A stretch of 35,941 bases of DNA from a virus: positions 1 to 35,941 of IMG/VR virus record IMGVR_UViG_3300008050_000130; one strand, given 5' to 3'. Position numbers and translations under genes: made by a program. Below, in pieces: positions 20,991-35,941 of this stretch. Each line of letters starts with the position of its first letter. The stretch's first letter is position 1. The notes beneath the pieces were generated by a model. That model was not told the origin of the DNA and searched no databases. It saw only the letters and a program-made list of their open reading frames with translations.

Positions 20991-20996
20991 ACCTAA

Positions 20997-21167: not shown

Positions 21168-21403
21168 TGGCAGGGTTTAATCAAACGAGTTTCAATTCAA
21201 CTTACTGTAATTCGGGGCAGTCATTTTCTAGATGGCTAGCGTCAACTATTGTCGCAATCGTAGGGTCGTTGCAACAGTCATTCCGTCCACCGAGGCGCAT
21301 GGCTCAATCGGCAACGACTCGAGTAAATAGCGAAGCTGTCGGAACGGATCGCTCAGTTCGAGAAATTGACACTAATACAGATCGGATTGTGGAGCGGTTT
21401 TAA
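21167..21403 (+). CDS. Hypothetical protein, 78 aa
   Basis: It is coupled on both sides: TAATG with the preceding gene and a one-base stop/start overlap with the adaptor gene at 21403. The first half is polar and carries one hydrophobic stretch (WLASTIVAIVGSL, about 23-35), which could be a membrane-active or buried helix. The second half is basic and then acidic. I recognise no family. A lysis or tail-assembly role cannot be separated on this evidence. Confidence 0.6.
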   Translation: MAGFNQTSFNSTYCNSGQSFSRWLASTIVAIVGSLQQSFRPPRRMAQSATTRVNSEAVGTDRSVREIDTNTDRIVERF

Positions 21404-22221: not shown

Positions 22222-22664
22222 TGGACAACGAACAAGCTCACGTAATTTTAAATGGCAAAAAAATTCCTATCTCTGGCTCAGTAGTCTGGGATAAAGTAAC
22301 TCCGTTTCCAGATGCGTTTATAGATCAACCACCAACTGAAGCAGATTTTAAGCCAGTTAAAAAACACCGCTGGGGATCGCTACGTGGTGGAGCTGGTGTC
22401 GAGAAGTGGTCGAAAGAAAACAACGATCGCTATTGGGAAGCCACAGATGTTGACACCTCACAGAGCAAGCAAACGCTAGGACCGCTTGTAACTACCCTTG
22501 CTTCTTTCGGCGCTGCCCCTGTGAAGCTGATATGGCATAACGACGCTCTTTGGGCGATTGGGCATAGGGCTATTTCTAGCTGGAATGGTTCTGCTTGGTC
22601 TTCAAAGAAAACTGATATTGATAATCCCACGGATGCGATTGTATATTTTGGGGCAGCATCTTAA
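22221..22664 (+). CDS. N-terminal part of a split tail hub/propeller protein, 147 aa
   Basis: After an extended N-terminus the sequence GSLRGGAGVEKWSKENNDRY begins the type of propeller domain found in podovirus tail hub or nozzle proteins. The last 50 residues (LIWHNDALWAIGHRAISSWN, GSAWSSKKTDIDNPTDAIVY) form one blade and stop at the point where the next strand should begin. The stop overlaps the next ATG (TAATG, 22662-22666). The following protein resumes with a matching blade only after about 240 residues. It is therefore probably one half of an ancestral single gene. Confidence 0.6.
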   Translation: MDNEQAHVILNGKKIPISGSVVWDKVTPFPDAFIDQPPTEADFKPVKKHRWGSLRGGAGVEKWSKENNDRYWEATDVDTSQSKQTLGPLVTTLASFGAAPVKLIWHNDALWAIGHRAISSWNGSAWSSKKTDIDNPTDAIVYFGAAS

Positions 22665-24742: not shown

Positions 24743-24785
24743 AAGAAAAGCCCCGAGGGAATCGAAACCTCGGGGCTTTTCTTTT
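24741..24785. terminator. Bidirectional terminator between convergent operons
   Basis: AAAAGAAAAGCCCCGAGG (24741-24758) and CCTCGGGGCTTTTCTTTT (24768-24785) are perfect inverted complements over 18 bases with a nine-base loop. Each strand has a GC stem followed by TTTTCTTTT, so it works in both directions. The left arm begins inside the stop codon of the tail hub gene. It stops the + strand structural transcript and the - strand recombination transcript where they meet. Confidence 0.95.
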
Positions 24786-24817
24786 GGGCAGGTAGCCCGT
24801 CGCAGTAGGAGCCAACC

Positions 24818-24859
24818 GATACGACTTGTCTATGATTGCATGTCCAAGACAAACGTATC
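24818..24859. repeat. Imperfect inverted repeat in the convergent gap
   Basis: GATACG (24818-24823) pairs with CGTATC (24854-24859), and TTGTCT (24826-24831) pairs with AGACAA (24847-24852). The stems are separated by small bulges and enclose a 15-base loop. The gap 24786-24886 holds no gene, and this is its only clear structure. It could be a second terminator or RNA 3' end element for the - strand operon, or a protein site. It has no U-tract. Confidence 0.45.
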
Positions 24860-24886
24860 TTATCAGTTGAAACTACTTAGCGCTGA

Positions 24887-25198
24887 CTAGGGCTGCACAG
24901 CTGACGTAACAAGATTGCACTCACAGCTCGGGCAATGGCGCATTTTCTGGCGAACACTCGTTTTACCTACCAATCGATACATTCCTCTGCGGCGATTAGG
25001 CTGACGATCCATTTCAATGTCCCACATATCGTCTTTTAGCGTGAGTATACGAGCTGCAACCCGTTTACTTCCCGAGACTTCTTCTAAGCGCTCTACGGTG
25101 ACATGCTTGCCGAAATTTACTGCCAGTTCGTGAAGAATAAATTTCTTCTGACCTTTGTAGGCTTGAACATCATCGGCGGTCATAAAGTTTGGGTACAT
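24887..25198 (-). CDS. Winged-helix-like small protein with CxxCxC tail, 103 aa
   Basis: I start it at the ATG at 25198, which overlaps the previous stop (TAATG). The longer open frame to 25324 is shadow sequence. Residues 20-77 fit a winged helix: KFILHELAVNFGKHVTVERL, then a recognition-helix-like SGSKRVAARILTLKD, then a wing WDIEMDR...GMYRLVG. C89, C92 and C94 (CPSCEC) near the end may bind zinc. It is the last gene of the recombination operon and could regulate it, but the target is unknown. Confidence 0.6.
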   Translation of the reverse strand: MYPNFMTADDVQAYKGQKKFILHELAVNFGKHVTVERLEEVSGSKRVAARILTLKDDMWDIEMDRQPNRRRGMYRLVGKTSVRQKMRHCPSCECNLVTSAVQP

Positions 25199-25467
25199 TA
25201 GCTTTTCCTTTTCACTCTCGGCAACGTGCCGAGCTTTTTGTTGTTTATAGATTGGTATGCTTGCTGCGATGCTTTGTGGCGCTTGAAGAATCCGTTCTTC
25301 TTTACCTCGACTGGCTGCTCGCACATTTCACAGATCGAAAGAATCCTTCCGTTGACTTGCGCTGACTTGCGATTTTCCTCCACCTTGAACGATGGCTGGA
25401 GTTCCTGCATACGCTTCTCTCCAGTTACGCACCAGTCCACGCTAAACCTTGATTGATTGAGAGCCAT
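25198..25467 (-). CDS. Small basic CxxC protein, 89 aa
   Basis: Start ATG at 25467 lies after a GGACGGTGG-type purine run. The product is basic. It carries C46-x2-C49 (ILSICEMCEQPVEVKKNGFF) followed by H64 in a KRH run, which could be a partial zinc knuckle of the kind seen in nucleic-acid-binding phage proteins. It is coupled by TAATG to the winged-helix gene downstream. No family assignment. Confidence 0.6.
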   Translation of the reverse strand: MALNQSRFSVDWCVTGEKRMQELQPSFKVEENRKSAQVNGRILSICEMCEQPVEVKKNGFFKRHKASQQAYQSINNKKLGTLPRVKRKS

Positions 25468-25492
25468 TTACCACCGTCCGTTCTTGTTGTGT

Positions 25493-25517
25493 TTCATTCC
25501 AATTTTTTTAGAATGAA
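25493..25517 (-). promoter_or_regulatory. A-rich-loop stem between SbcD and the small basic protein gene
   Basis: TTCATTC (25493-25499) and GAATGAA (25511-25517) pair around an 11-base loop that is almost all A in the - strand transcript. It occupies the 78-base gap after the SbcD-like gene, the only real gap in the distal operon. The stem is AU-rich and weak, so it may be a processing site or protein target rather than a terminator. Confidence 0.35.
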
Positions 25518-25545
25518 CCTTTTTTAGCGGGGACAATTTATAAAA

Positions 25546-26664
25546 CTACTTTTTGGAATGTTCGAGAACGCTTTGGAATTTGCTTCGAACATCTTTAGCG
25601 AGCTTTGCATCAATGCTTGAGTGTCGTAGGTAAGCATCTACGGCATCGGTCGGGATCATAGCCGCCAAAGAGTCGCCCGAAATTCTTTGGGCTACAACTC
25701 GCTCCACGTTTATCTCGACCGACTCGACCACATCAGCTGTTTTACTTAGCGCCTCACGTATCTTGGCGACTTCTTCTGGCGATGGCTCCTCTCCTGCTGA
25801 TACGTCTTGTCGATAGCGAGCTACGTCGTAATGAACGGTTTCATTACCCAGTTGAGTATCTTCGTTAGCGTCCAGTAGTCTGATCGAGGTTTTGTACGGA
25901 ATAAAAGTTTCGACTTTACCGAGGTATTCGGTGTCGATAACTACGAACCCTTTTCGATGTTCAGCATCACCCCAGTCGGTCGGTTGCGAGCTGCCGATGT
26001 AGCCTTTTTGAGAAGGGTCGTGAACGTGTCCGAGGAACACCGCATCAAAGTTTGCTGCAAGTGCGTCGTAGTCGAATACAACGTCCTTGCCAGCCCATTG
26101 GAGATTCGGCGAGTGAGCCAGCTCTGTGCCGCCAGCGTAGCTCACCATAGCGTGTCCGATAAGGACGTTTTTAAGGTTGGGGTTTATCATCAAGTTGAGT
26201 TCATCGAGGGCAACGGCTTGTGTGAGTTCGAGCTGGGTATCTAAATTCCCATTGCACATACGCGCATCAACACCATATGCCTGTGGCGTTATCCACGGCA
26301 AAAACACAAAGTTGGTGTCTCCCCAAACGTATTGAGCTGGTTTTTTTCTTGCCCATAGCATTGCGGTAAAAAACGCCCAAGTTCCCGACGTTGAATCTTT
26401 GGCAATTTCATCGTCGTGGTTTCCGTCAGCCCCCATAAAAGCAATCATGGCGGTGTTGAGTCGCCAAATTTGATCGTGCATAAACTTTCCATCTGACGGC
26501 GACGGCTTACGGCTGTGGAATATGTCACCAGCTAAGGCGACGGCATCTAGTTTGTTTTCTATGGCGTAGTCAATTAGCTCGACAACTGGGGCTCGCCATT
26601 TCTCGTCGGATACGCCGAACTTGTTTGCTCCGATGTGTGTGTCGGCTGCGATCGCGATTTTCAT
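25546..26664 (-). CDS. sbcD: SbcD/Mre11-like nuclease subunit (phage gp47 type), 372 aa
   Basis: The metallophosphoesterase signature is complete: D8-T-H10, GD47, GN82HD, H171 in LIGHAMV, and GHVH (H213, H215). These residues hold two Mn ions in the Mre11/SbcD/gp47 active site, which degrades DNA ends with its ATPase partner. The C-terminal 150 residues form the expected capping and partner-binding region. It lies two genes downstream of the SbcC-like gene, separated by a 45-aa protein coupled on both sides. The likely role is end processing for phage recombination with the RecT-like protein upstream. Confidence 0.92.
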   Translation of the reverse strand: MKIAIAADTHIGANKFGVSDEKWRAPVVELIDYAIENKLDAVALAGDIFHSRKPSPSDGKFMHDQIWRLNTAMIAFMGADGNHDDEIAKDSTSGTWAFFTAMLWARKKPAQYVWGDTNFVFLPWITPQAYGVDARMCNGNLDTQLELTQAVALDELNLMINPNLKNVLIGHAMVSYAGGTELAHSPNLQWAGKDVVFDYDALAANFDAVFLGHVHDPSQKGYIGSSQPTDWGDAEHRKGFVVIDTEYLGKVETFIPYKTSIRLLDANEDTQLGNETVHYDVARYRQDVSAGEEPSPEEVAKIREALSKTADVVESVEINVERVVAQRISGDSLAAMIPTDAVDAYLRHSSIDAKLAKDVRSKFQSVLEHSKK

Positions 26665-26801
26665 TATTTTGTTACCTCAATACATTTCGGGCATGTAACG
26701 TCGTTGATTTTTGTAGATTCTTCTACCACTTCTGCCCATTTTCCATAGACAAGAATTCCGCATGGCGTGTACGTGTTGAATATGTAACTCATGTGAATCA
26801 T
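26664..26801 (-). CDS. 45-aa CxxC protein coupled between SbcC and SbcD
   Basis: The ATG at 26801 overlaps the sbcC stop (TAATG) and its own stop overlaps the sbcD start (TAATG at 26666-26662), so all three are translationally locked. The product MIHMSYIFNTYTPCGILVYG ... DVTCPKCIEVTK has C14, C37 and C40, and one CPKC knuckle at the end. The frame is open exactly from gene to gene with no spare bases, which is strong evidence of coding. A structural or regulatory partner of the nuclease complex is an attractive guess. I know of no such subunit. Confidence 0.7.
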   Translation of the reverse strand: MIHMSYIFNTYTPCGILVYGKWAEVVEESTKINDVTCPKCIEVTK

Positions 26802-28963
26802 TATTTGATCCTGCTTTCGTTGCCGTTTGAGACAATTTCGATTTGTTGGTCAACCATCTGTTTGACGGTTTCTATGTGGGTGATCGCTACTACGTCGATC
26901 CCTGTGTCAGCAACTTTTGCCAGCATGTTCATAAACTGTTGCTGGTAATTTCCTGTTAACCAGGCATCGGCTTCGTCGAGGTACAAAGTCTCGTAATGAA
27001 TCCCTTGTGCAGCTCCACCAACTTCAGCGAGCCCCAGTCGAACGGCAAGCGCTACGGCTACGCTCTGTGCGCCTGACAGCTCGCTCCACGGCTGGATTGC
27101 TCCGCTGGGCAGGATCACACCTTCGTCGAAAGTCTCTCGATCTGTGTCAGTCTGAGTCGAGAACGCTATTTCGAATTCTGGAGCGATGATTGCCAGCCAT
27201 CGGTTGCAAGCTGGTTCTAGTTGTGCGAGCGCTTGGTCAATGATGAGCTGGCGTATTCCGTTGACACCGCACATCAACACAACAGTTTCCCATTGGTGTA
27301 ATTCGGTTTTGTGTTCTCCGAGCAAATTTCTGTAATTGGAGAGCTGCGTTTTAGCTTTCTTGGCAGCTGCAAGAGCTTGCTCGCCGAGCGCTACATTTAC
27401 TCGTTGCATATCTCTTGCTTCAAGCGATACCCGCTCATTTTCGAGCGCCTGATTCTCGGTTGCAATCAAGCGTTCTAGGTAGTTTGATTCGGGTCGCTCT
27501 GTTGTTTCAATCCACCGTTTCATGTTTGTGATATTGACTTCAATTTCGTTTGCTTCGCCGACTAACACATTTTTTTGAATTTGCTGAGTTTGTATTAAGT
27601 CTCCTGCGTTTGCTGCTTTTGCTCGAAGCTCGATGATTCGTTCGTCTTGCCCTAGTTCACTTGGCACATCGAACGGTGCTGGCATGGTTTTGTCAGCTGG
27701 TCGAGCTGGCGGGATTTCTTTTTCCAATTCAGCAATTTCTTTTCGAGCGCCTGAGATTATCCCCTCCCAGCCAGTTCCGTTGGCAATTATGTTGTCGAGT
27801 TCTTCGCGCCTTTTACCAGTCAGCGGCTGATTGCATGTACGGCAAGTGCTGTTTTCCAATTCCTCGATAGCAGCTCCAATTATTTCGGCTGCTGCAATTT
27901 CATCGTTCAAAACTATTTTGTGATTAGCAATATCTTTGTGAAATTGTTCGACCTCGCTTTGCCATCGGGCAATCGCTCGGTCATATTCATAATTCCAATT
28001 ATGTTGAGCTTCGCGTATACGCTCGTTTTCGAGCCGAACTTTGTCTATTTCGGCTTGTCGATCTGCGATTTTCTTTTGGTGAGTGTCGTAGTCCGAGTTG
28101 ATGCTGCTAAGTTGAGCAGCTGATTTTTGCAGCTCGGCAATGTTGGTGTCGATTTTGTTTATTGATGCTAGGCAAGTTGTTGCTTGGATTTGTGCGGCTG
28201 CCAGCCTGTCGTCCCTGTCTTTCCATTCGACAACTATTTTTCGACCACGATCCACGGCGGCGCTTGAGTCCTTTAGTTTGCTGGAGGCTTTTTCCAAAGC
28301 AATATCGGATTCGACACCGAGCAATCGTGCTGCGGCAAGAGTTTGGCTAACAGCATCAAGCGGTTCAGCTGCTTCCGCTATCACAGGAATTGCACCTTCA
28401 ATTCGAAGTATTTCTGATTCGTAGTGAGTCACTCGTTGTTTAGCAATCAACTCCCATTGATCCCAGTCGCCAGTTCCAGCGACAATTTCGCGAAGTATGC
28501 CTTTCCGCTCGTAAGCGTTTGCTTCAAGGAATTGCCCAGCGCCTTCACGTTGTCCAACGTAGGCGGTCATTTGCCATACCTCAAAGCTGCCAGCAATAGA
28601 ATTGATTGTCGCTTGAGTTTCTTTAACGGTGGCTTTGGTGAGGTCTGATTTGTCAGTAAGCAACAGCTGAGTTACGCCGCCCTTGCCATTTTTGTTTAGT
28701 CTGAATCGGCGTGTAACCACATATTCAGTTCCGTTCGAGTTGAACGTCAGCTTGCCGACCATTTCACGTTCGCCGTGTCTAACTAAAAAGTCTTGGGTTC
28801 TGCCTGGAGTTTGACCCCACATCACCCACGCTGCTGCTATTCCGAGGATTGTCGATTTCCCTGTTCCGTTTTGTCCCGTTACTAGGCTTAATCCGGTCGG
28901 TATTTTGTAGTTTGCGTTGGCGAACGTCCTCATGTTCGCCAGCTCTACGTTTTCGATTCTCAT
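26801..28963 (-). CDS. sbcC: SbcC/Rad50-like ATPase subunit (phage gp46 type), 720 aa
   Basis: I start at 28963 (MRIENVELANMRTFANANYK) with AAGGA just upstream. The ATG at 28999 would add an unlikely 12-residue leader. Walker A is GQNGTGKST (30-38). Long coiled-coil arms meet at the zinc hook C374-R-T-C377, near the exact middle. The signature LSGAQ (about 625), Walker B LYLDEAD (D663, E664) and the H-loop ITHIE follow. The length is shorter than cellular SbcC and fits phage gp46. It forms the complex with the SbcD-like protein. Confidence 0.93.
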   Translation of the reverse strand: MRIENVELANMRTFANANYKIPTGLSLVTGQNGTGKSTILGIAAAWVMWGQTPGRTQDFLVRHGEREMVGKLTFNSNGTEYVVTRRFRLNKNGKGGVTQLLLTDKSDLTKATVKETQATINSIAGSFEVWQMTAYVGQREGAGQFLEANAYERKGILREIVAGTGDWDQWELIAKQRVTHYESEILRIEGAIPVIAEAAEPLDAVSQTLAAARLLGVESDIALEKASSKLKDSSAAVDRGRKIVVEWKDRDDRLAAAQIQATTCLASINKIDTNIAELQKSAAQLSSINSDYDTHQKKIADRQAEIDKVRLENERIREAQHNWNYEYDRAIARWQSEVEQFHKDIANHKIVLNDEIAAAEIIGAAIEELENSTCRTCNQPLTGKRREELDNIIANGTGWEGIISGARKEIAELEKEIPPARPADKTMPAPFDVPSELGQDERIIELRAKAANAGDLIQTQQIQKNVLVGEANEIEVNITNMKRWIETTERPESNYLERLIATENQALENERVSLEARDMQRVNVALGEQALAAAKKAKTQLSNYRNLLGEHKTELHQWETVVLMCGVNGIRQLIIDQALAQLEPACNRWLAIIAPEFEIAFSTQTDTDRETFDEGVILPSGAIQPWSELSGAQSVAVALAVRLGLAEVGGAAQGIHYETLYLDEADAWLTGNYQQQFMNMLAKVADTGIDVVAITHIETVKQMVDQQIEIVSNGNESRIK

Positions 28964-29105
28964 AAGTGTCCTTGTGGCAGTCGCAAGAGCAGGGTCCATT
29001 GAACCTAATGTTCTTCATTCTGCCGTTGATTCTTGTAGGTCTGTTTGTTGCCCACATACCAAAGCACTCGGTCTCACAAGTTACGTGCATATTGTGTACA
29101 CACAT
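28779..29105 (-). CDS. Possible Cys-rich small protein overlapping the sbcC start
   Basis: The 141-base gap between the annealing-protein stop (29147) and the ATG at 28999 is open in a third frame that begins MCVHNMHVTCETECFGMWAT. It carries C10, C14, then CSCDCH (47-52), a pattern typical of small phage zinc proteins. The frame then runs 185 bases into sbcC, where it looks like random shadow (RKLQNTDRIKPSNGTKRNRE). Either the gene is real and overlaps heavily, or only its first 55 residues are meaningful. The ribosome site is poor. Confidence 0.4.
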   Translation of the reverse strand: MCVHNMHVTCETECFGMWATNRPTRINGRMKNIRFNGPCSCDCHKDTYENRKRRAGEHEDVRQRKLQNTDRIKPSNGTKRNREIDNPRNSSSVGDVGSNSRQNPRLFS

Positions 29106-29146
29106 AGCTGTGAGCCGAGCATCGCCTTGATTGGGCGCACCGAGCG

Positions 29147-30238
29147 CTACCACGGAAGTTCTTCGATTTGCTCTCCGTCCTCGACTGTGATTGCAGGGGC
29201 GGGGCTCCAGCACATCATCTTGACAGAATCAACTATTTCTTCGAGTGAATAGTCGCCTGATCGAGTCATAACTGCTACGCCTTTTCGCCCGCTAGCTCCT
29301 TCAAAATTGAACTTGTCAATTTCAATTTCACCTAACTCGTTAATAGCAGCAACAACTTCAAGTGCGAGTTCTTTCGCGTCGATTGTTTTCACACTTCGAT
29401 CTAGTCCGCTTTCGGCTGGTGCGATAGCCTCTATGGTTTCGCTAACGTCCCGAACGTCGCCTGTTGTAGCGTCCATCACTTCATTCCCGTCTATCAGGGT
29501 TTCCATGTTGACACCTAGCGGACATGCTAGTTCCATCGCTCGGCAATACGCTCTCTTGACTGCCATTTCAGCGGGGTTCGCTTTGGCTACTGGTTGGCTG
29601 GCATCACGCTTTCCACCAGCTCGACCAAAGTTTTCGAACGGCATACGCTCGCCGTTGATCGGGTTCAACTTCCAGATAGTTGCTACGATTCCGACCTCGT
29701 TATCTTCTAGTTGGTACGCTTCTCGCTCGTCAGCTGTCATAGGTCGGTCGGTTGCTCCACCGTCGAGAGCCCCGAGCGCTCGCTTAGTCCAGAACACTCG
29801 ACCCTTGTAGTTCAAGTAGAGTTTGCCGTGTATCACGTTCATGTGCATCGGCTGGAACCCGTTGGCGGTGAGCTGGGTGGCAAGTATCAGGTCAGAGTCA
29901 GGCAAGTTAGCGCCGTACCCTTCGATGCTTTGTTCTAATTCTTTGCCAGTAATTGCGATTTGCTGATCGCTTGGTTTCACTAGCTCAAGTGCGGTCTGTT
30001 GCGTCACAGTCATCTCTCCATGTTTCTGCCGCAGTTTCGATTGGATTGCGGCGTTCTGAATTTCGCCAGTCTGATATTTTTCGGTTTCCGAATTCACCCT
30101 AATGCGATCTGCTGGCTGGTCGTCGCAAAAGTAACAGTAGTCATCGCCGTACTTAGTGATGAGCAACTTGTCGGGGTGAATGGCACAAGCAGCTCGCCGT
30201 GTTTGGGCGAGCTGCTGTTTTCGGTGTCGTAGTGTCAT
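29147..30238 (-). CDS. RecT-like single-strand annealing protein with N-terminal zinc finger, 363 aa
   Basis: The ATG at 30238 directly follows the previous stop. Residues 1-75 carry C18-x2-H21 and C35-x2-C38, a zinc finger. From about 76 the core resembles phage RecT/Bet-type annealing proteins: LATQLTANGFQPMHMNVIHG, then EVGIVATIWKLN, the G-R-A-G-G turn, and NPAEMAVKRAYCRAMELACP (about 222-241), whose KRA-x-x-RA helix is typical. The acidic C-terminus ends QIEELPW, like tails that recruit partners. With SbcCD-like nuclease downstream it makes a nuclease-plus-annealase recombination pair. An internal start at M76 is possible but has no proper ribosome site. Confidence 0.6.
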   Translation of the reverse strand: MTLRHRKQQLAQTRRAACAIHPDKLLITKYGDDYCYFCDDQPADRIRVNSETEKYQTGEIQNAAIQSKLRQKHGEMTVTQQTALELVKPSDQQIAITGKELEQSIEGYGANLPDSDLILATQLTANGFQPMHMNVIHGKLYLNYKGRVFWTKRALGALDGGATDRPMTADEREAYQLEDNEVGIVATIWKLNPINGERMPFENFGRAGGKRDASQPVAKANPAEMAVKRAYCRAMELACPLGVNMETLIDGNEVMDATTGDVRDVSETIEAIAPAESGLDRSVKTIDAKELALEVVAAINELGEIEIDKFNFEGASGRKGVAVMTRSGDYSLEEIVDSVKMMCWSPAPAITVEDGEQIEELPW

Positions 30239-30436
30239 TTACTCGCCAGCGATTTTGTAGCCGCCAGCTCGCAATTCAGCGTGGGTACGCCTGAGCGCTG
30301 TTACGGACTCTACGGGCAAGTCGATGGTGCTGTCGGCGTTTTGGTAAATCTTGACGTTTACCTGAGTTTCGCCTTTCGCAGTTGACTTTATTTCGATTGA
30401 ACTTTGACTCAATCCTTCGGTGTTTGGCGTGACCAT
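30239..30436 (-). CDS. Hypothetical protein, 65 aa, first gene of the recombination operon
   Basis: The ATG at 30436 follows AAGGAG (about 30446-30441), placed just after the interleaved hairpins at 30452-30524. Residues 15-35 (IEIKSTAKGETQVNVKIYQN) form a beta hairpin pattern, and the rest is helical. The stop abuts the ATG of the annealing protein. I do not recognise a function. Its place suggests an accessory to the annealing protein. Confidence 0.65.
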   Translation of the reverse strand: MVTPNTEGLSQSSIEIKSTAKGETQVNVKIYQNADSTIDLPVESVTALRRTHAELRAGGYKIAGE

Positions 30437-30451
30437 TTTGGCTCCTTAAAG

Positions 30452-30524
30452 CGAAGCGCCCGTTGAATCCTCTCTACTGGCTTCAACGGGCGCTTCGATA
30501 TTCAGTTTTCGTTCCAGTAGAGAG
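30452..30524 (-). promoter_or_regulatory. Interleaved alternative hairpins, leader switch candidate
   Basis: Stem A pairs 30452-30467 with 30482-30497 perfectly over 16 bases. Stem B pairs CTCTCTACTGG (30470-30480) with CCAGTAGAGAG (30514-30524) perfectly over 11. B's left arm lies in the loop of A and A's right arm lies inside B, so the two cannot both form fully: the two-base link is too short for a pseudoknot over 11 bp. In the - strand transcript stem B is made first and stem A second. Stem A is followed by CUUUAAGGAG, a short U run and then the ribosome site of the 30436 gene. This is the layout of an attenuator or translation switch between the HTH gene and the recombination operon. Confidence 0.7.
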
Positions 30525-30530
30525 TGCTGT

Positions 30531-30761
30531 CTACCTTACCTTATTTGGGTCGAACCCTGCACTCGCGGCGACACTATCTATCTTGCGTTCGGTATCTGGT
30601 GTGGGGAAATACTTTCCGTGAAACCAATTACTGATAGTGTTTCGATGAACTCCTAGTGCGAGCCCAAGCTCCAGTTTGCCTAGTGAGTTGGGGTGCGAGT
30701 TGGGGTCTCGTAGCTTCAATGCCAACGCTCGAATTGTTTTTTTATTCCATCGTGTTTTCAT
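30531..30761 (-). CDS. Small HTH (XRE/Cro-type) protein, 76 aa
   Basis: I use the ATG at 30761, which overlaps the previous stop by four bases (ATGA), in place of the longer frame from 30791. Residues about 31-50 (GKLELGLALGVHRNTISNWF) are a clear helix-turn-helix with the TIS-x-W recognition core, followed by HGKYFPTPDTERKIDSVAAS as in small XRE repressors. It is the last gene before the interleaved hairpins, so it may control the early or the recombination genes. There is no cI-like cleavage domain. Confidence 0.75.
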   Translation of the reverse strand: MKTRWNKKTIRALALKLRDPNSHPNSLGKLELGLALGVHRNTISNWFHGKYFPTPDTERKIDSVAASAGFDPNKVR

Positions 30762-31114
30762 TGCATGTACGGGGTTGCATAAAGCACCCACTCTCCATCG
30801 TGTCCTTGTAGCCGCTGACTGGTGAATTGTCCGTTACCCGCAAGTTCGGCTAATTTTTTGAAACGGCTGTAACAGTTACAGTGATAGTTCGCTCGTTCAT
30901 CGTGTATGGAAGTTTCTTTCAGCTCTGCCGCCCCAGCTTCGGTCGAGTGCCACGGTTGTTGATCGTGGTTATCGGTCGCAACCCTGACCGCTTCTACGTG
31001 GAGCTTCTCGGTTCCAATCTGAAGGTCGCCGAGCAAGTATCCATCGCAGCCGCCGACTGCTTCTAGCCGTACCCCAGTAAGCGGGATACGGCTGGTGTTT
31101 CTACTTGTAGTCAT
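30758..31114 (-). CDS. Hypothetical protein, 118 aa
   Basis: The start at 31114 follows GAGG and overlaps the previous gene by 14 bases; the longer frame to 31243 is shadow. The product begins MTTSRNTSRIPLTGVRLEAV. It has a beta-rich first half (EKLHVEAVRVAT) and then a helix-rich end with H78-C79-N80-C81-Y82 and the tail GHDGEWVLYATPYMQ. No family recognised. The HCNC cluster is a weak metal-site candidate. Confidence 0.6.
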   Translation of the reverse strand: MTTSRNTSRIPLTGVRLEAVGGCDGYLLGDLQIGTEKLHVEAVRVATDNHDQQPWHSTEAGAAELKETSIHDERANYHCNCYSRFKKLAELAGNGQFTSQRLQGHDGEWVLYATPYMQ

Positions 31115-31337
31115 GCGCTGCCTCGTATTCCAGAATTTCATATCCTGCACTTGCGAGCGCATCGGCAATCTCGGCTGTGGTGTCGCTGTCCCATTCATGC
31201 CCCGACAGTAGCCTGTGGATTTTGTCGAGCGTTTCCGAGGCACTTGGCGTAGCCTTGACCTTTTGCTCGGGCTGTTTATCAGCCCAAATTATTTTGCGTT
31301 CGCCGTGGCGAATAGTTCGTATTAGTTCGTTTGTCAT
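31101..31337 (-). CDS. Hypothetical protein, 78 aa
   Basis: It starts at 31337 by TAATG coupling to the gene before; the in-frame ATG at 31415 would overlap that gene by 79 bases and is rejected. The product (MTNELIRTIRHGERKIIWAD ... IADALASAGYEILEYEAAHD) is charged, with a C-terminal helix followed by an acidic strand. No known domain or cysteines. It belongs to the tightly packed early set. Confidence 0.6.
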   Translation of the reverse strand: MTNELIRTIRHGERKIIWADKQPEQKVKATPSASETLDKIHRLLSGHEWDSDTTAEIADALASAGYEILEYEAAHDYK

Positions 31338-31591
31338 TACACGTTCCGGTAGTGATTCTGAGTGACTAGCACTCGCTGGTTGACTCGCTTGATTCGGATA
31401 GGGTCGGCGTACCAATTAGCGCAGCAATCGTATGAGTGCTGGCAGTAGTCGCCTTCTGGGTTGTACGCCCATCGCTCGCCGATTTCTTCATCGGTGATTC
31501 CAGCGGGTAGTACTACCCATGTTTTCTCCCAGTCGTTATCGCTGTCTGTCGATGTGGCTAGGTTTAGCTTGAATCGTTGTTTAGTGGTCAT
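31337..31591 (-). CDS. Hypothetical protein, 84 aa
   Basis: The ATG at 31591 forms an ATGA overlap with the previous stop. An ATG two codons earlier (31597) is equally near AGAGG and cannot be excluded. The sequence holds WEKTWVVLPAGITDEEIGER, then YCQHSYDCCANWYADP (Cys/His/Trp cluster about residues 49-64), then a basic strand. The cluster C-x-H-x3-CC could bind zinc. Unknown function. Confidence 0.6.
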   Translation of the reverse strand: MTTKQRFKLNLATSTDSDNDWEKTWVVLPAGITDEEIGERWAYNPEGDYCQHSYDCCANWYADPIRIKRVNQRVLVTQNHYRNV

Positions 31592-32259
31592 TTCCATGTT
31601 GCCTCTTGAATAGCTAGTTTTGCGAGCTTGGTTACTTCAAGCTCAAATTGATCTTGTAACTCGGCGGTGCTAACTGCAATCCCAACAAACGAAATGCCTG
31701 TCCCCCTCCCGTGGTTGAGCGATGCCCATTGAGTCATGTTGTTAGCGAGGTGGCTGTTGAGCTTGGCGGCGAAACTTTCAATCGCTGTGTACCAGTCAAA
31801 GTCGTCGTAAATTTGATCGCCTTGTTTATCGGTTGGAATTGCCGATGCGAAACATTGTGCCGCTGATATAACGCCGAGCCGGTAGCCTGAGCTGCCTTCG
31901 ATTTCGTCGATGAATTCGAGGTCAATAGCGGCGCTGGCTACACCCAACTCGAACGCGTTTTCCATGTCGGCGTAGTCAAAGTTGGTGCGACTCATAATGT
32001 TGTCGAGGTCGCTGACTGGTAGCTTGCTGACTGGGGCTACCTCCCTAACTCTAAATTCGTCGGGGTCGTATCCTTCATCAGCTGCGCGTTCGCCCGATGC
32101 GATCTGGGCGGCGATTTCTGCGAGGTCGCTGTCTATCTCTGCTTGAGCTTCTTCACGGCTGTCGAATACTAGCGGTATTTCGTTACCGTCGGTATCTTGG
32201 GTGGTCGAGGCGTTTATCCAGCCGTCGCACCATGTTTCGTGTTGTATTTCGTACTTCAT
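31588..32259 (-). CDS. Hypothetical early protein, 223 aa
   Basis: It starts at 32259, directly after the previous stop (TAAATG). Residues 1-75 (MKYEIQHETWCDGWINASTT ... FDSREEAQAEIDSDLAEI ... FRVREV) match a small beta-alpha module that many phages carry as a free-standing protein of unknown function. Residues 80-223 add a helical domain (YADMENAFELGVASAAIDLE, SGYRLGVISAAQCFASAI, LAKLAIQEATWK) that I do not recognise. It is the longest gene of the early block and strongly acidic. Confidence 0.65.
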   Translation of the reverse strand: MKYEIQHETWCDGWINASTTQDTDGNEIPLVFDSREEAQAEIDSDLAEIAAQIASGERAADEGYDPDEFRVREVAPVSKLPVSDLDNIMSRTNFDYADMENAFELGVASAAIDLEFIDEIEGSSGYRLGVISAAQCFASAIPTDKQGDQIYDDFDWYTAIESFAAKLNSHLANNMTQWASLNHGRGTGISFVGIAVSTAELQDQFELEVTKLAKLAIQEATWK

Positions 32260-32418
32260 TTACTTAACTTCCTCAACTTCATAAAAGTCGTGTTCCTGCC
32301 AATTCCTGACAAGTTCGCCCTTGCCTTCGCTGACTAGGTGTTCGGCTTCTTCTTCGGAAGATGCTTCGACTTGGTAGGTGTCGGCGGTTGAGCGGTATTC
32401 GATTACGTCGTATTTCAT
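32260..32418 (-). CDS. Small acidic protein, 52 aa
   Basis: The start at 32418 follows the recurring AAGAAGGATCGAA ribosome module and forms ATGA with the previous stop; the frame extended to 32454 is rejected. The product MKYDVIEYRSTADTYQVEAS, then SEEEAEHLVSEGKGELV and the end FYEVEEVK, is a beta-alpha-beta miniature of the module that begins the next gene (both start MKY and carry EEA). A diverged copy of that module is a fair guess. Confidence 0.65.
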   Translation of the reverse strand: MKYDVIEYRSTADTYQVEASSEEEAEHLVSEGKGELVRNWQEHDFYEVEEVK

Positions 32419-32564
32419 TTCGATCCTTCTTTGCTTTCTGTGCAGTAAGCCCACTCGCAGGTGTCTGCTGACTGGTCTACAATTTCGACGATCAAGCCAA
32501 TCGGCTGATCTTTGCCCAAACAGTTTTCGCAGATTTTTACTGGGCGATAAAATTCCTGGGTCAT
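32415..32564 (-). CDS. Small zinc-ribbon-like protein, 49 aa
   Basis: It is coupled at both ends by ATGA overlaps. The product MTQEFYRPVKICENCLGKDQ ... DTCEWAYCTESKEGSK has C12-x2-C15 and C36-x4-C41, a plausible four-cysteine zinc ribbon. Its last codons AAA GAA GGA TCG AAA TGA also serve as the ribosome site of the next gene, so the C-terminus KEGSK is dictated by that DNA module. Unknown role. Confidence 0.7.
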   Translation of the reverse strand: MTQEFYRPVKICENCLGKDQPIGLIVEIVDQSADTCEWAYCTESKEGSK

Positions 32565-32579
32565 TTCGATCCTTCTTTG
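32415..32579 (-). repeat. Duplicated junction module, CAAAGAAGGATCGAAATGA, two copies
   Basis: The 19-base sequence occurs perfectly on the - strand at 32433-32415 and 32579-32561. Each copy encodes the final residues KEGSK of one gene, the ribosome site, and the overlapping stop/start (ATGA) of the next. The two genes are otherwise unrelated. Similar GAAGGAATCGA ribosome modules occur before 33932 and 34859, and a shorter GAATCGAA form before 35926. Confidence 0.85.
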
Positions 32580-32767
32580 TTTTCGCTGTCTGCTTTAAAC
32601 CCGCTGTCGTGGTTCATAAGCTCGTTGTAGTCGCCCCATGCGAATATGTCGGCGTTGACTGCGTGAGCGTCGGCGCTGTCTTGGTCACTACGGGCGGCGA
32701 CTGAGGTGATCGTTCCATCTGGCAGGAACATCGATTGCGCTGTCTGGCGCTCGGCTTTGTCGGTCAT
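32561..32767 (-). CDS. Hypothetical protein, 68 aa, mosaic of shared motifs
   Basis: The ATG at 32767 follows ATAGGAGC. The product contains FLPDGTITSVAARSD near residues 14-28 and NHDSGFKADSENKEGSK at the end. The first motif recurs in the 34587-34859 product (IPDGTITSV) and the second in the 33477-33932 product (NRDSGFEVDSE), in both cases with near-identical DNA. The protein looks assembled from pieces shared with its neighbours. Function unknown. Confidence 0.65.
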   Translation of the reverse strand: MTDKAERQTAQSMFLPDGTITSVAARSDQDSADAHAVNADIFAWGDYNELMNHDSGFKADSENKEGSK

Positions 32768-32781
32768 GTCTAGCTCCTATC

Positions 32782-32805
32782 GCCGCCAGCTCTATGGCTG
32801 GCGGC
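32782..32805 (-). promoter_or_regulatory. 9-bp hairpin upstream of the 68-aa gene
   Basis: GCCGCCAGC (32782-32790) pairs perfectly with GCTGGCGGC (32797-32805) around a six-base loop. In the - strand transcript it comes after the 44-aa gene's stop and just before the ATAGGAG ribosome site of the next gene. It has no U-tract, so processing or translation control is more likely than termination. Confidence 0.5.
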
Positions 32806-32815
32806 TGTCTGGGGT

Positions 32816-32950
32816 TTATATGAGCCCGAGCCTGAGCATCGGCGACTCTTTGCCGTGTTCGCACTCGCCGTCGGCTTCTACGTCGCAACCGTCCTCAGTC
32901 GTTACTACTGTGCCGTCGCCAAAATCTTCGTCGCCTATTAGGTCAAACAT
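32816..32950 (-). CDS. Small phage protein of the DGCxVExDGxCxHG...LGLI type, 44 aa
   Basis: Start at 32950 after AAAGGGAATCGAG. The product MFDLIGDEDFGDGTVVTTED, then GCDVEADGECEHGKESPMLR and LGLI, matches a short motif found in many phages and plasmids, where D-G-C-x-V-E-x-D-G-x-C-x-H-G-x-x-S-P-x-L-x-LGLI is almost the whole protein. C22, C30 and H32 suggest a half zinc site. The function of this widespread family is unknown to me. Confidence 0.75.
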   Translation of the reverse strand: MFDLIGDEDFGDGTVVTTEDGCDVEADGECEHGKESPMLRLGLI

Positions 32951-32970
32951 CTCGATTCCCTTTCGATTCC

Positions 32971-33058
32971 TAGTGCTGATCTAGCACTATCGGAGCGCCG
33001 ATACCCAACCGAGAATATCGACGCTCTGATAGTGCGGCGAGCCGTTGCCAGCTCGCCG
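32971..33058 (-). promoter_or_regulatory. Structured intergenic region with competing hairpins
   Basis: Three elements fill the 113-base gap 32951-33063. TAGTGCT/AGCACTA (32971-32977/32983-32989) is a 7-bp hairpin. GCACTATCGGAGCG (32984-32997) pairs with 33022-33035 at 13 of 14 positions and continues with CGATA/TATCG (32999-33003/33016-33020), giving about 19 pairs. CGGCGAGC/GCTCGCCG (33035-33042/33051-33058) is an 8-bp hairpin. The first two share AGCACTA and exclude each other. No U-tract follows on either strand. Confidence 0.6.
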
Positions 33059-33063
33059 TCGAT

Positions 33064-33480
33064 CTATCTGTTGTTAGCGATAGTGTTATCAGGGTAGAAG
33101 TGTTCCCCGTCCCACACGCCGTCCTCGTAATCTGCGCGAGATTCCTGATACTGGCGATTTTCCATATCCGCCTCGTGAGCGATCTGGCGGGCGCAGGATT
33201 CGCAGATACCTTCTTCATCTTCGAGGGTGTCTTCGATCCATTCAAGCTCCGAGCCTTTAAGGGTGCTTCGAAATCCATCATCAGAGTCTCCGCAATCCGC
33301 ACACGTCGAGCGCCAAAATATCGACCTAGCGGTTGGTGAATCTTCAATGGCATCTACGCCGTCAGTTACAACAGCCTCATAGACTTTCAAAATGGTGGGA
33401 ATATCCGCACCGTCCCACCATGATTCAGTCTGCCACCCACTCCACTCGGCAATTCTTCTTAACTTGTCTATGTCGCTCAT
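33064..33480 (-). CDS. Early protein with CxxC...CxxC zinc site, 138 aa
   Basis: It is ATGA-coupled to the previous gene. The product starts MSDIDKLRRIAEWSGWQTES. Its centre has CADCGDSDDGFRSTLKGSEL (C60, C63) and later GICESCARQI (C93, C96), a spaced four-cysteine zinc ribbon. The C-terminal third is acidic and rich in Asp, Glu and Tyr (WDGEHFYPDNTIANNR). Not assigned to a family. A nucleic acid or protein adaptor role would be usual for such a ribbon. Confidence 0.7.
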   Translation of the reverse strand: MSDIDKLRRIAEWSGWQTESWWDGADIPTILKVYEAVVTDGVDAIEDSPTARSIFWRSTCADCGDSDDGFRSTLKGSELEWIEDTLEDEEGICESCARQIAHEADMENRQYQESRADYEDGVWDGEHFYPDNTIANNR

Positions 33481-33932
33481 CGGTAATCTACAATCTCAAG
33501 GTGTCCAGATTGCTGAGCGGCTTCGATTATCGTGTTGTATCGCTCCGTCTGCGTCGGGAGCGGCGACACATAACGGGGATCGTTCAAGCTCTCCATATCC
33601 CGCGGCGATACTTCGTTGTATCGGCGTTGAAGCGAGAGATTGCGCTCAGGGATATACCAGCGTTCGCTGTCTACTTCAAACCCGCTGTCGCGGTTAACAA
33701 TGCCTGCTGACTTCATAAAGCGGGGTGCGTCCATATCTTCCTCCAGATATACGTTCTCGCCGTCTGTATAGCTGTATGAGCTGGCGGGTGCGTCGGCGAG
33801 TTCGTAAGCGCTGACTGGGACTTTAAGCCAACCGTGGGAGCTGTCGCTTATAAACTCCATTGTGTGGGTGTCGCCGTTGGTCGGCGGGGTTGTTAGCAGC
33901 TCTATGATCTGCTGTCGGGTCGTGTCGTTCAT
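33477..33932 (-). CDS. Early protein with SHGWLKV/YLEED motifs, 151 aa
   Basis: The start region is a DNA repeat shared with the 34859 start (product MNDTTR in both). The core DSSHGWLKVPVSAYELADAP, SSYSYTDGENVYLEEDMDAP matches a small family of unknown function found in many phages, in which S-x-x-HGWL, YSY and YLEED are conserved. Residues about 79-89 carry the NRDSGFEVDSE motif also found in the 68-aa protein. The end is helical. There is no catalytic motif I can name. Confidence 0.7.
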   Translation of the reverse strand: MNDTTRQQIIELLTTPPTNGDTHTMEFISDSSHGWLKVPVSAYELADAPASSYSYTDGENVYLEEDMDAPRFMKSAGIVNRDSGFEVDSERWYIPERNLSLQRRYNEVSPRDMESLNDPRYVSPLPTQTERYNTIIEAAQQSGHLEIVDYR

Positions 33933-33964
33933 GGGTCTCGATTCCTTCGGGCTTGTGTCGGTCG

Positions 33965-34026
33965 CTGGGGCGCTTCGCTCCAGAGCTAAGGCGCTAACGG
34001 GGTGAATCGTTAGCGCCTACGCTCTG
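33965..34026 (-). promoter_or_regulatory. Strong compound hairpin downstream of ardA
   Basis: AGGCGCTAACG (33989-33999) pairs perfectly with CGTTAGCGCCT (34008-34018). CAGAGC/GCTCTG (33981-33986/34021-34026) extends it after a 2x2 internal loop. A second hairpin, CTGGGGCG/CGCTCCAG (33965-33972/33976-33983), competes for CAG. In the - strand message it follows the ardA stop by 13 bases. A CTTT-like run is absent, so it probably protects the ardA 3' end or reduces read-through. Confidence 0.6.
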
Positions 34027-34039
34027 CGGCGAAACTAGG

Positions 34040-34582
34040 CTAATCGGCGGGGGCGAATACATATCCGTCGTGTTCGATGTATCCCCAATCTCTCATTACG
34101 TGATCGAAATATAATTTCCAGTCGATGTAATAAGCGATCTCGTCGGGGACGTTCAGAAGCGCTCCGGTTTCGTCGGCGAATTGCTCGGCGTATTCTTCGC
34201 CGCTCATTTCGCCGCAATACTGTTGATCGAACCGTTCGGCGTAGTCGCTAATATCCTGCGGCAAATCGTCCTTGCCTTGATAGTCGATCCACGCGAGAAA
34301 CGCGGCTTCGTCCCGTATTCCGTCCATTACTGCGGACAACTCCGCAACATCTCGGAGCGGCGTATATTCCTCGATCAATCGACCAAATCCTTCGTGGTCG
34401 AAGATCGCGAATTCTTCGGCGTATGGCTGGCGGCTGGTGGCTAGTATTCGGGCGGCTTCGGCGTTCAGCTCGTCGCCGTCTTTCCCGTCAACGTCTACCC
34501 ACTCGCCGAGCAAGTCGCCGTTGTTGTAGTCGGCGAGCGATCCGATCCAAATTCGGCGCTCGGTTGCTGTTGTTGTTGTCAT
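34040..34582 (-). CDS. ardA: Antirestriction protein ArdA, 180 aa
   Basis: The start at 34582 follows AGGAG. The opening ERRIWIGSLADYNNGDLLGE is the hallmark of ArdA, followed by FAIFDHEGFGRLIEEYTPLR and the C-terminal ISDYAERFDQQYCGEMSGEE, YAEQFADETGALLN and YYIDWKLYFDHVMRDWG. The length is normal. The protein is strongly acidic, as expected for a dimer that mimics about 40 bp of B-form DNA and ties up type I restriction-modification enzymes. It is made from the fifth gene of the early operon, so it would protect incoming DNA soon after entry. Most known copies are on conjugative plasmids; phage copies are known. Confidence 0.93.
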   Translation of the reverse strand: MTTTTATERRIWIGSLADYNNGDLLGEWVDVDGKDGDELNAEAARILATSRQPYAEEFAIFDHEGFGRLIEEYTPLRDVAELSAVMDGIRDEAAFLAWIDYQGKDDLPQDISDYAERFDQQYCGEMSGEEYAEQFADETGALLNVPDEIAYYIDWKLYFDHVMRDWGYIEHDGYVFAPAD

Positions 34583-34586
34583 GTTC

Positions 34587-34859
34587 TTAGGCTCCTGTAA
34601 TCGTGCTTAGTAGGTCGGCGGCTTCGTCGGCTGCCCACGCTGCTTCTTCGAGTTTGTCGGCGGCTTCGTCTAGGGTGTCGGCGGCTTCTTCGAGTGCTTC
34701 CAGTTGGACTGAGGTGATCGTTCCGTCTGGGATGTTGCCGATCTTCTCGCGCTCATCGTCGGCGAGCTGTCGCACTTCGTCGGCGATGCCCGAAAATCCG
34801 TTGTCGGTGAAGATGTTTTCGATCTGTGTTTGAACATCTTTGCGGGTCGTGTCGTTCAT
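34587..34859 (-). CDS. Small helical acidic protein, 90 aa
   Basis: I start at 34859 after the CGAAGGAATCGA module; the longer frame to 34994 is read through a non-coding hairpin and is rejected. After MNDTTRKDVQTQIENIF and the cassette IPDGTITSV, the last 40 residues are Ala/Glu/Asp heptads (LEALEEAADTLDEAADKLEE), a strong coiled coil. It ends four bases before the ardA ATG. An acidic helical protein next to ArdA could be another DNA mimic, but that is a guess. Confidence 0.65.
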   Translation of the reverse strand: MNDTTRKDVQTQIENIFTDNGFSGIADEVRQLADDEREKIGNIPDGTITSVQLEALEEAADTLDEAADKLEEAAWAADEAADLLSTITGA

Positions 34860-34910
34860 TGTTTTCGATTCCTTCGTTCGTTCGGTTGGTCGAGCTGAGC
34901 GGCTCGGCAT

Positions 34911-34939
34911 AGCTCGCAAGCGCTCAAGGCTTGCGAGCT
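34911..34939 (-). promoter_or_regulatory. 11-bp hairpin between early gene groups
   Basis: AGCTCGCAAGC (34911-34921) pairs perfectly with GCTTGCGAGCT (34929-34939) around a seven-base loop. It lies in the 91-base gap after the 88-aa gene and before the ribosome module of the 90-aa gene. No U-tract follows on the - strand (the next bases are ATGCCGAGC), so read-through is expected. It divides the first three genes from the ardA pair. Confidence 0.6.
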
Positions 34940-34950
34940 GTACCCAGACG

Positions 34951-35217
34951 TTAAGCGTTGGCGTTCTGGCTGGCAAGGTAACGCCGTATTGCATAGGCGC
35001 AATGCTCGCAACATTCGGACACGGGCGCAGCTGGCGCAGCTGGGGCGGCTTGGTCGAGCTTGTAGAGGTAGGCGTTAACTCGGTTTACGCAAGTTAGCGC
35101 GAGCTCGTCCCTGCCTGATTGAATCATCAGCTGCATCATCTGAAGGTCTTGCATGGCTCGCCTTGCGTCGTAGTCTGGGGCGAGCTGGTCGGCGAGCTGT
35201 TTTAGTTCGGTTGTCAT
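34951..35217 (-). CDS. Small helical CCxxC protein, 88 aa
   Basis: It is TAATG-coupled to the previous gene. Residues 1-60 are helical with many Met and Gln (AMQDLQMMQLMIQSGRDELA). An Ala/Pro linker (AAPAAPAAP) follows, then SECCEHCAYAIRRYLASQ with C69, C70 and C73. The linker-plus-cysteine tail looks like a flexible metal-binding end. I do not recognise it. Confidence 0.65.
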   Translation of the reverse strand: MTTELKQLADQLAPDYDARRAMQDLQMMQLMIQSGRDELALTCVNRVNAYLYKLDQAAPAAPAAPVSECCEHCAYAIRRYLASQNANA

Positions 35218-35504
35218 TAGAGAACTTCTCCGTCTATTTTGATAGTTGTAGCTCCGGCGTTCGGGGCTCCGAATTCGTGGAGCGGGGTGAATTGTTCTTC
35301 CCCGTTCCGGTGATAAATAAATCCTTTGTAGTAGCTCTCTCCGTCGTCGTCGAGCATCTCGAAACTCGAGCGGATAATTCCCGCTCGGGTCTTAACGTGT
35401 GGGTCTCCTGAGTGTCGCCCTTTGGCGTTGGCGTTGGTTCCAGCTGGGGCGGCTGGGTCGGCGATCCGGTCAAGGGTGATTTCCCAGTAATACGAATAAC
35501 TCAT
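35217..35504 (-). CDS. Small early protein of the DDDG-YY...FGxPNAG type, 95 aa
   Basis: The start at 35504 overlaps the previous stop (TAATG) and follows AGAGGCGG; the frame from 35525 is rejected. MSYSYYWEITLDRIADPAAP, then FEMLDDDGESYYKGFIYHRN and FTPLHEFGAPNAGATTIKID follow a pattern seen in small proteins of many phages and plasmids (Y-W-x-I-T, DDDG-x-x-YY-x-G, PL-x-x-FG-x-PNAG). The fold should be beta-rich. Function unknown. Confidence 0.7.
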   Translation of the reverse strand: MSYSYYWEITLDRIADPAAPAGTNANAKGRHSGDPHVKTRAGIIRSSFEMLDDDGESYYKGFIYHRNGEEQFTPLHEFGAPNAGATTIKIDGEVL

Positions 35505-35926
35505 TATTTCGCCGCCTCTGCCCATGCTGTCGCCCAGCGCTCGAGCAGCTCGACAATGTGAGCGTTTTCGGGTGCGTGAATGTCTAGGTCGTTGCCACCT
35601 AACGCAATATCAACAGCTGCAAACCGTCGGCGGGCTTCGTGTTGGGCTGTTGTGAGGTTTCCTGCGTAGGCTTTCCATGCGGCGGGTTTACTTTGATCTG
35701 CGAAGGCTTGCACCTCGTCGGCGTGTTCCTGTATCCCTTCGGGGCTGTACTGGTGATTTAAGCGCCTAGCTTCGGTGATTGCTTCATATTCATTAACGCA
35801 GCATGTAACTGCTTCACTGTCGCCGTTGGCGAACACTTCCCGCACTTCGAAATGTCCGGTCTCGATTAGGTCGCCCGTTGTCGGGTCTGCGTGTTCGTCG
35901 GTCTGGACTATGAATGATGAGGTCAT
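35504..35926 (-). CDS. First visible gene of the early operon, 140 aa, unknown
   Basis: The ATG at 35926 follows GGAGAATCGAAACA, and the ribosome site begins at the very edge of the window. The first 60 residues (TGHFEVREVFANGDSEAVTC, then CVNEYEAITEARRLNHQYSP) form a beta-alpha module resembling those in other small early genes. The remaining helical part (AWKAYAGNLTTAQHEARRRF, ELLERWATAWAEAAK) is not recognised. The promoter must lie outside the window. Confidence 0.65.
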   Translation of the reverse strand: MTSSFIVQTDEHADPTTGDLIETGHFEVREVFANGDSEAVTCCVNEYEAITEARRLNHQYSPEGIQEHADEVQAFADQSKPAAWKAYAGNLTTAQHEARRRFAAVDIALGGNDLDIHAPENAHIVELLERWATAWAEAAK

Positions 35927-35941
35927 TGTTTCGATTCTCCA

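What the first reader, a model, noticed from the sequence alone, without database searches (positions are those of the whole stretch)
30531..35926. ArdA-centred early block as a candidate anti-defence island
ArdA is clear. It is surrounded by about 14 very small, mostly acidic or zinc-binding proteins of unknown function that belong to families scattered over phages and plasmids. Genes beside ArdA in other mobile elements often counter restriction, CRISPR or other defences. The 90-aa acidic coiled-coil neighbour and the 95-aa, 151-aa and 44-aa conserved-type proteins are the first to test.
Basis: partly seen in the sequence, partly recalled or inferred. Interest (0 to 1): 0.7.

Follow-up and report, generated by a model that had tools for sequence, protein, structure and literature searches.

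The report
Phage early genes around one anti-restriction gene
This is a cluster of tiny, probably first-transcribed accessory genes of an uncultured bacterial virus; one gene (ArdA) almost certainly blocks bacterial DNA-restriction enzymes, but the others are mostly generic, easily swapped small genes for which nothing yet shows a role against bacterial defences.

Summary
In detail: window 30531-35926 (minus strand) is a tightly packed run of 16 short ORFs, 14 of the 15 ArdA neighbours acidic, with a clear full-length ArdA at 34040-34582 (PF07275, E 7.5e-27; net charge -30). The window is an IMG/VR phage record. A related contig (L037) carries the same block divergent from its terminase genes, so this is very likely an early operon. 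L037 swaps ArdA precisely for a 123-aa DUF7222 protein between near-identical flanks, lacks the 138-aa and 49-aa genes, and keeps most others. So ArdA sits in an exchangeable accessory slot. The 'anti-defence island' reading fails its own counting test: ArdA lies near only 2 of 79 loci of the 95-aa family and 1 of 80 of the 151-aa family; 150 proteins beside ArdA in 70 viral loci included no recognised anti-restriction family among the 25 commonest Pfam families, and only two DNA methylase matches. Best reading: a mosaic early accessory operon in which only ArdA has evidence of counter-defence. Unexpected extra: gaps between genes hold very stable hairpins, three of them 94-98% conserved against 81-87% in most neighbouring genes, and one bounds the swapped slot.

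The parts
35504..35926 (-). 140-aa acidic ORF, first gene of the block in this record; no recognised family; replaced by other small ORFs in relative L037
35217..35504 (-). 95-aa protein, phrog_12268 family; 87% identical in L037; 112 or more viral contigs; model pLDDT 82.5, no significant PDB fold match
34951..35217 (-). 88-aa protein with a CCxxC motif; longer (126 aa) homologue in L037
34587..34859 (-). 90-aa acidic coiled-coil-like protein, phrog_4068 family (E 2e-11)
34040..34582 (-). ArdA anti-restriction protein, 180 aa, net charge -30, pI 4.05; the slot holds a DUF7222 protein in L037
33933..34039 (-). intercistronic hairpin between ArdA and the 151-aa gene (MFE -47.7, z -6.4), 98% identical in L037
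33477..33932 (-). 151-aa protein of a very large phage family with motif (D)xxHGW ... YLEEDCDA
33064..33480 (-). 138-aa acidic protein with two Cys pairs (possible zinc site); absent from the same place in L037
32951..33066 (-). double intercistronic hairpin before the 44-aa gene (MFE -60, z -7.3), 94% identical in L037
32816..32950 (-). 44-aa acidic protein, 100% identical in L037; relative near ArdA in L186 (E 5e-8)
32768..32815 (-). hairpin followed by GATAGGAGC and a start codon
32561..32767 (-). 68-aa mosaic ORF sharing short DNA repeats with the 90-aa and 151-aa genes; L037 homologue has an extra N-terminal Cys-rich motif
32415..32564 (-). 49-aa Cys-rich ORF between 24-nt direct repeats; absent from L037
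32260..32418 (-). 52-aa protein, 98% identical in L037
31588..32259 (-). 223-aa acidic protein; first 75 residues 80% identical in L037, which ends there
31337..31597 (-). 86-aa protein, weak phrog_20892 match (E 0.0017)
31101..31337 (-). 78-aa ORF, no recognised family
30758..31114 (-). 118-aa ORF, no recognised family
30531..30761 (-). 76-aa basic HTH protein (HTH_3-like, below cutoff), likely DNA-binding regulator
30437..30530 (-). hairpin (z -3.9) before the 65-aa gene, end of the block

Best explanation
The block is a leftward early accessory operon of an uncultured tailed phage, divergent from the terminase genes. It is a mosaic of small, independently exchanged genes. ArdA is a genuine DNA-mimic anti-restriction protein that would bind type I restriction-modification enzymes in place of DNA soon after infection; in this phage lineage it occupies one exchangeable slot, where a relative carries a DUF7222 protein instead. 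The other genes are generic small phage early genes of mixed, mostly unknown function (at least one likely DNA-binding regulator); some may counter defences, but the block as a whole is not a dedicated anti-defence island. Shown: the gene content, ArdA family membership, the precise slot exchange, the gene gains and losses, and the weak neighbourhood association. Inferred: early timing (from layout and from known phages), inhibition of type I enzymes (from the family), and exchange through short shared leader repeats and hairpin-bearing gaps.
For: ArdA above the curated cutoff, acidic; a profile built from it and nine homologues hits solved ArdA structures 2w82/7bto/7btr over most of its length (E 2e-22). 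L037 has the block beside divergent TerS and TerL. ArdA is exchanged for DUF7222 (PF23864, E 2e-16) with 98% identical downstream DNA; the 138-aa and 49-aa genes are present/absent, the latter between 24-nt repeats. A distant virus, L142, has TerS divergent from an early run with ArdA, a 68-aa-like and a 151-aa-like gene. In actinophages ArdA lies in right-end blocks of small genes. Association counts are low.
Against: Family libraries miss most anti-CRISPRs and other small inhibitors, so lack of matches near ArdA is weak evidence of absence. L037's first early gene has a sub-threshold Lar match (E 2.9e-4). The 151-aa family co-occurs with ArdA in 7 of 80 ArdA loci, though six of these look like one group of related phages. 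The slot exchange rests on one comparison. Early timing is not measured.
Confidence: 0.7

Rival explanations
1. A true anti-defence island: ArdA blocks type I restriction and several neighbours (the DUF7222 alternate, 95-, 90-, 151-, 138- and 44-aa proteins) each block other defence systems, and the slot exchange reflects an arms race with changing host defences.
For: ArdA present; ArdA slot swapped for another acidic small protein; Lar-like first gene in the relative, below cutoff; published clustering of anti-defence genes in mobile elements (PMC7648647, PMC11541004); ArdA directly follows a 95-aa homologue in L130.
Against: Census of 150 ArdA neighbours shows no known anti-restriction family among the 25 families displayed; the 95-aa and 151-aa families are mostly far from ArdA; no PADLOC or NCBIfam hit in the block; acidity is shared with the phage's structural proteins.
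Confidence: 0.2
2. The neighbours are mainly host-takeover or regulatory early genes (transcription, translation, nucleases, DNA replication control), and ArdA is a lone cargo gene, or itself acts partly as a DNA-mimic regulator.
For: HTH protein at the end of the block; SbcC/SbcD-like proteins further downstream; [quoted passage not shown] coli (PMC13300388, abstract start seen).
Against: No direct functional evidence for any neighbour; the ArdA slot's exchange for DUF7222 would need another explanation.
Confidence: 0.1

Closest known systems
ArdA (PF07275; Tn916 ORF18, 2w82; further entries 7bto and 7btr)
   Same: Full-length family match, acidic, similar length, found in phages and other mobile elements
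   Different: Only about 30-37% identical to its nearest phage relatives; host and target enzymes unknown
Anti-defence islands of plasmid leading regions and acr loci (PMC11541004, PMC7648647)
   Same: Small genes around ArdA on one strand, early-entry logic
   Different: Only one recognised anti-defence gene here; no enrichment among viral ArdA neighbours in this census
Right-end blocks of small genes in actinophages (Zolita, Cuco, MyraDee, RGL3, Nancinator, SpeedDemon)
   Same: ArdA lies among small unknown genes on one strand near the right end
   Different: Apart from ArdA, none of the block's proteins matched the fetched Zolita, RGL3 or SpeedDemon stretches; the others were not searched with the whole block
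Start-associated sequences of Cluster K mycobacteriophages (PMC3203893)
   Same: Repeated non-coding sequence just before start codons of small non-structural genes, sometimes with inverted repeats; GATAGGAGC before the 68-aa gene resembles GGGATAGGAGCCC
   Different: The main repeat here is GGAATCGA, and the hairpins between genes each have their own sequence

Membership tests
ArdA (PF07275) | Profile match above the curated cutoff over the full domain | tested here: met
   95.3 bits against 27, profile positions 1-154 of 155
ArdA (PF07275) | Strong negative charge of a DNA mimic | tested here: met
   42 D/E against 12 K/R, pI 4.05
ArdA (PF07275) | Homology to solved ArdA structures | tested here: met
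   Profile of this and nine homologues hits 2w82, E 2e-22
ArdA (PF07275) | Inhibits type I restriction or modification | not testable with these tools
   Needs a plaque or conjugation assay
Anti-defence island | Two or more recognised anti-defence genes clustered | tested here: not met
   Only ArdA recognised; Lar-like gene in L037 is below cutoff
Anti-defence island | Neighbour families associated with anti-defence genes elsewhere | tested here: not met
   2 of 79, 1 of 80; none among the 25 displayed Pfam families of 150 ArdA neighbours
Anti-defence island | Early-entry or early-transcribed position on one strand | tested here: inconclusive
   One strand, divergent from terminase in L037; timing not measured
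Small ArdA (sArdA, PMC12548430) | Short protein homologous to the N- or C-terminal part of ArdA | tested here: not met
   No other block protein reached the inclusion threshold with the ArdA profile; best E 0.01 for the 138- and 140-aa proteins
Cluster K SAS/ESAS | GGGATAGGAGCCC repeats a few bases before starts | tested here: inconclusive
   One near match by eye; not counted statistically; a different repeat, GGAATCGA, dominates

The most novel reading that the evidence does not exclude
The block is an array of interchangeable early gene cassettes bounded by conserved RNA hairpins and shared leader-start repeats, in which ArdA and DUF7222 alternate as functional equivalents, making DUF7222 a new anti-defence family.
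Probability: 0.13. Interest if true: 0.6.

Novelty: new member of a known kind. Interest (0 to 1): 0.35.

Why it matters
It gives a concrete, testable swap (ArdA for DUF7222 in the same slot) and shows by counting that being beside ArdA in a phage is weak evidence for an anti-defence role, a caution for guilt-by-association screens. The conserved hairpins between genes are a possible new element of early operon control or gene exchange.

Tried and rejected
Near-identity DNA search of window 20000-35941 against the phage collection: no match. Single-sequence searches of IMG/VR with ArdA and with the 363-aa protein: no relatives; an alignment of ArdAs succeeded. Capsid-related viruses (L002-L015, L023-L036) share no early gene with the window by tblastn and have no ArdA. 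Fold searches of the 95-aa model (pLDDT 82.5) and the 151-aa model (pLDDT 63.9, poor) gave no PDB match with E at or below 0.001; a weak similarity of the 95-aa model to phage Dmd (probability 0.47, E 0.6) was not accepted. No Rfam family in 25000-35941. The hairpins were considered as intrinsic terminators, but the terminator scan found none at these places on the minus strand. DUF7222 relatives lie in Enterococcus myophages, Brevibacillus and Bacteroides phages and a few plasmids; in the four neighbourhoods read there was no consistent anti-defence neighbour, though one, BS-TP1, has a Lar-like gene about 4 kb away. No paper in the library mentions DUF7222. SbcC matches PADLOC SMC-type models (best LmuB, E 1.2e-21) but is better explained as phage SbcC, PHROG_77 E 1.8e-57.

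Full report
What is there. The window is a 35,941-base IMG/VR virus record. Long plus-strand genes fill about 1-24.7 kb, and the minus-strand right arm carries SbcD-like and SbcC-like genes, a 363-aa gene and then the block in question. In 30531-35926 sixteen minus-strand ORFs are packed closely, most with Shine-Dalgarno-like sequences. ArdA at 34040-34582 is unambiguous: PF07275 95.3 bits against a cutoff of 27, PHROG_2059 E 6.7e-32, net charge -30, and an alignment that includes it hits the solved ArdA chains 2w82, 7bto and 7btr. Of the other 15 only the 95-aa (phrog_12268), the 90-aa (phrog_4068) and the HTH protein show recognisable families in the libraries; NCBIfam and PADLOC add nothing for the block proteins tested.

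A related contig. A search with the 223-aa protein found one contig, L037 (9,126 bases). Its early strand carries, in the same order, homologues of the 95-, 88-, 90-, 151-, 44-, 68- and 52-aa genes and the start of the 223-aa gene, at 58-100% protein identity. Differences concentrate on third codon positions for most of these genes, which shows they are real genes; the 90-aa and 68-aa genes show this less clearly. On the other side of a divergent intergenic region lie a small terminase subunit and, further on, the start of the large subunit; the window's own left end aligns to the latter. So the window is probably near complete, lacking roughly 4 kb between its ends (inference), and the block is the run of genes that points away from the packaging genes, a layout typical of early operons (inference from phage biology).

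The slot exchange. Between the 90-aa and 151-aa genes the window has ArdA and L037 has a 123-aa DUF7222 protein (PF23864, E 2.1e-16). The exchange is precise: the DNA from just behind the gene to the next start codon is 98% identical, more than the neighbouring genes. The 138-aa gene is absent from L037, and the 49-aa gene is absent too; in the window it lies between 24-nt direct repeats that include the ribosome-binding site and start codon. The 68-aa ORF shares short repeats with the 90-aa and 151-aa genes, and the latter two share a 34-nt leader-plus-start repeat (91%). This is a mosaic operon built by local recombination (inference). The relative's first early gene is a Cys-rich protein with a Lar (restriction alleviation) match below the curated cutoff (21.5 against 28.6 bits), so it is not counted as Lar.

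The guilt-by-association test. For the 95-aa family, at least 112 viral contigs matched; in 79 distinct loci fetched (viral contigs plus 12 bacterial genomes), ArdA lies within 6 kb in two: the virus of L053/L054, and an actinobacterial genome, L130, where an ArdA-like gene (E 1e-6 with the refined profile) follows directly. For the 151-aa family, at least 457 viral contigs matched, and one of the 80 fetched loci has ArdA. Conversely 7 of 80 ArdA loci have a 151-aa relative: L142 plus six that look like one group of related phages. L142 is informative: terminase genes divergent from ArdA, a 68-aa-like gene and a 151-aa-like gene. A Pfam census of 150 same-strand proteins next to ArdA in 70 distinct viral loci gave 30 matching families, of which the tool displays 25; integrase/recombinase and HTH families dominate, with two matches to DNA methylases and no recognised anti-restriction family among those shown. 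The neighbours of the 95-aa family gave two cytosine methylases and one ArdC N-terminal domain among the 25 of 28 families shown. Limits: five and three families respectively were not displayed; ORFs were called by a simple length rule; loci are the best-scoring ones, not a random sample; no matched control was run; and Pfam lacks most anti-CRISPR families. Within those limits the neighbours are not shown to be anti-defence genes.

Structure. A model of the 95-aa protein is fairly confident (pLDDT 82.5) but has no significant PDB match; the 151-aa model is poor (63.9) and likewise has none. So structure does not assign them.

Hairpins and start repeats. Folding the exact gaps gave very stable hairpins: ArdA to 151-aa gene, -47.7 kcal/mol, z -6.4; 138-aa to 44-aa gene, -60, z -7.3; 44-aa to 68-aa gene, z -4.6; HTH to 65-aa gene, z -3.9; 88-aa to 90-aa gene, z -2.7. 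The three that were also folded in L037 are as strong there (z -6.2, -7.7, -5.3) and are 94-98% identical, while most neighbouring genes are 81-87% (the 44-aa and 52-aa genes are 93% and 98%). A control with fixed 100-nt windows along the strand gave a mean z of -0.25 over 98 windows outside these gaps, minimum -3.0; windows overlapping the gaps ranged from +1.1 to -5.0 because fixed windows cut several hairpins, so this control does not reproduce the exact-gap values for all gaps. The octamer GGAATCGA occurs six times in the window against 0.95 expected; all four minus-strand copies lie just before starts of block genes. The motif was chosen after reading the sequence, so the count is descriptive. 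These features recall Cluster K start-associated sequences, but the sequences differ.

Mechanism. Shown: ArdA membership, operon content, slot exchange, gene gain and loss. Inferred: after DNA entry the operon is transcribed early, ArdA mimics DNA and occupies type I restriction-modification enzymes, and genes are exchanged between related phages through shared leaders and conserved gaps. Verdict: an ordinary kind of phage early accessory region with a genuine ArdA; the island label is not earned by the evidence, though individual neighbours, above all DUF7222 as the alternate occupant, remain fair candidates.

Noticed in passing
window 32768-32815, 32951-33066, 33933-34039, 34860-34950, 30437-30530: Very stable hairpins in the gaps between early genes; three of them 94-98% conserved in L037, without a terminator T-run.
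   Followed up: partly
window 34865-34872, 33938-33945, 32952-32970: Repeated GGAATCGA just before start codons of block genes; the 90-aa and 151-aa genes share a 34-nt leader-plus-start repeat.
   Followed up: partly
L037:1446-2345 and L037:2349-2474: A viral contig encodes a TatC protein (PF00902, E 2e-33) with a 41-aa membrane-type protein beside it, next to terminase genes; the corresponding stretch is missing from the window.
   Followed up: no
window 32816-32950 and L186:9428-9610: 44-aa protein identical in two viruses; a C-terminal motif DGCxVExDGxCxHGxxSPxLxLGxI recurs in a distant ArdA-bearing virus.
   Followed up: partly
window 33477-33932; alignment A11: Very large phage family (at least 457 viral contigs) with invariant H, EED and D residues; the window member has no significant Pfam, PHROG or NCBIfam match.
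   Followed up: partly
L099:3582-5305, L090:2437-4367: Other phages also start a run divergent from the terminase side with 95-aa-family and 151-aa-family genes next to each other.
   Followed up: partly
window 5665-14100: A 2,811-aa ORF in the structural arm, unusually long for a phage of this size.
   Followed up: no
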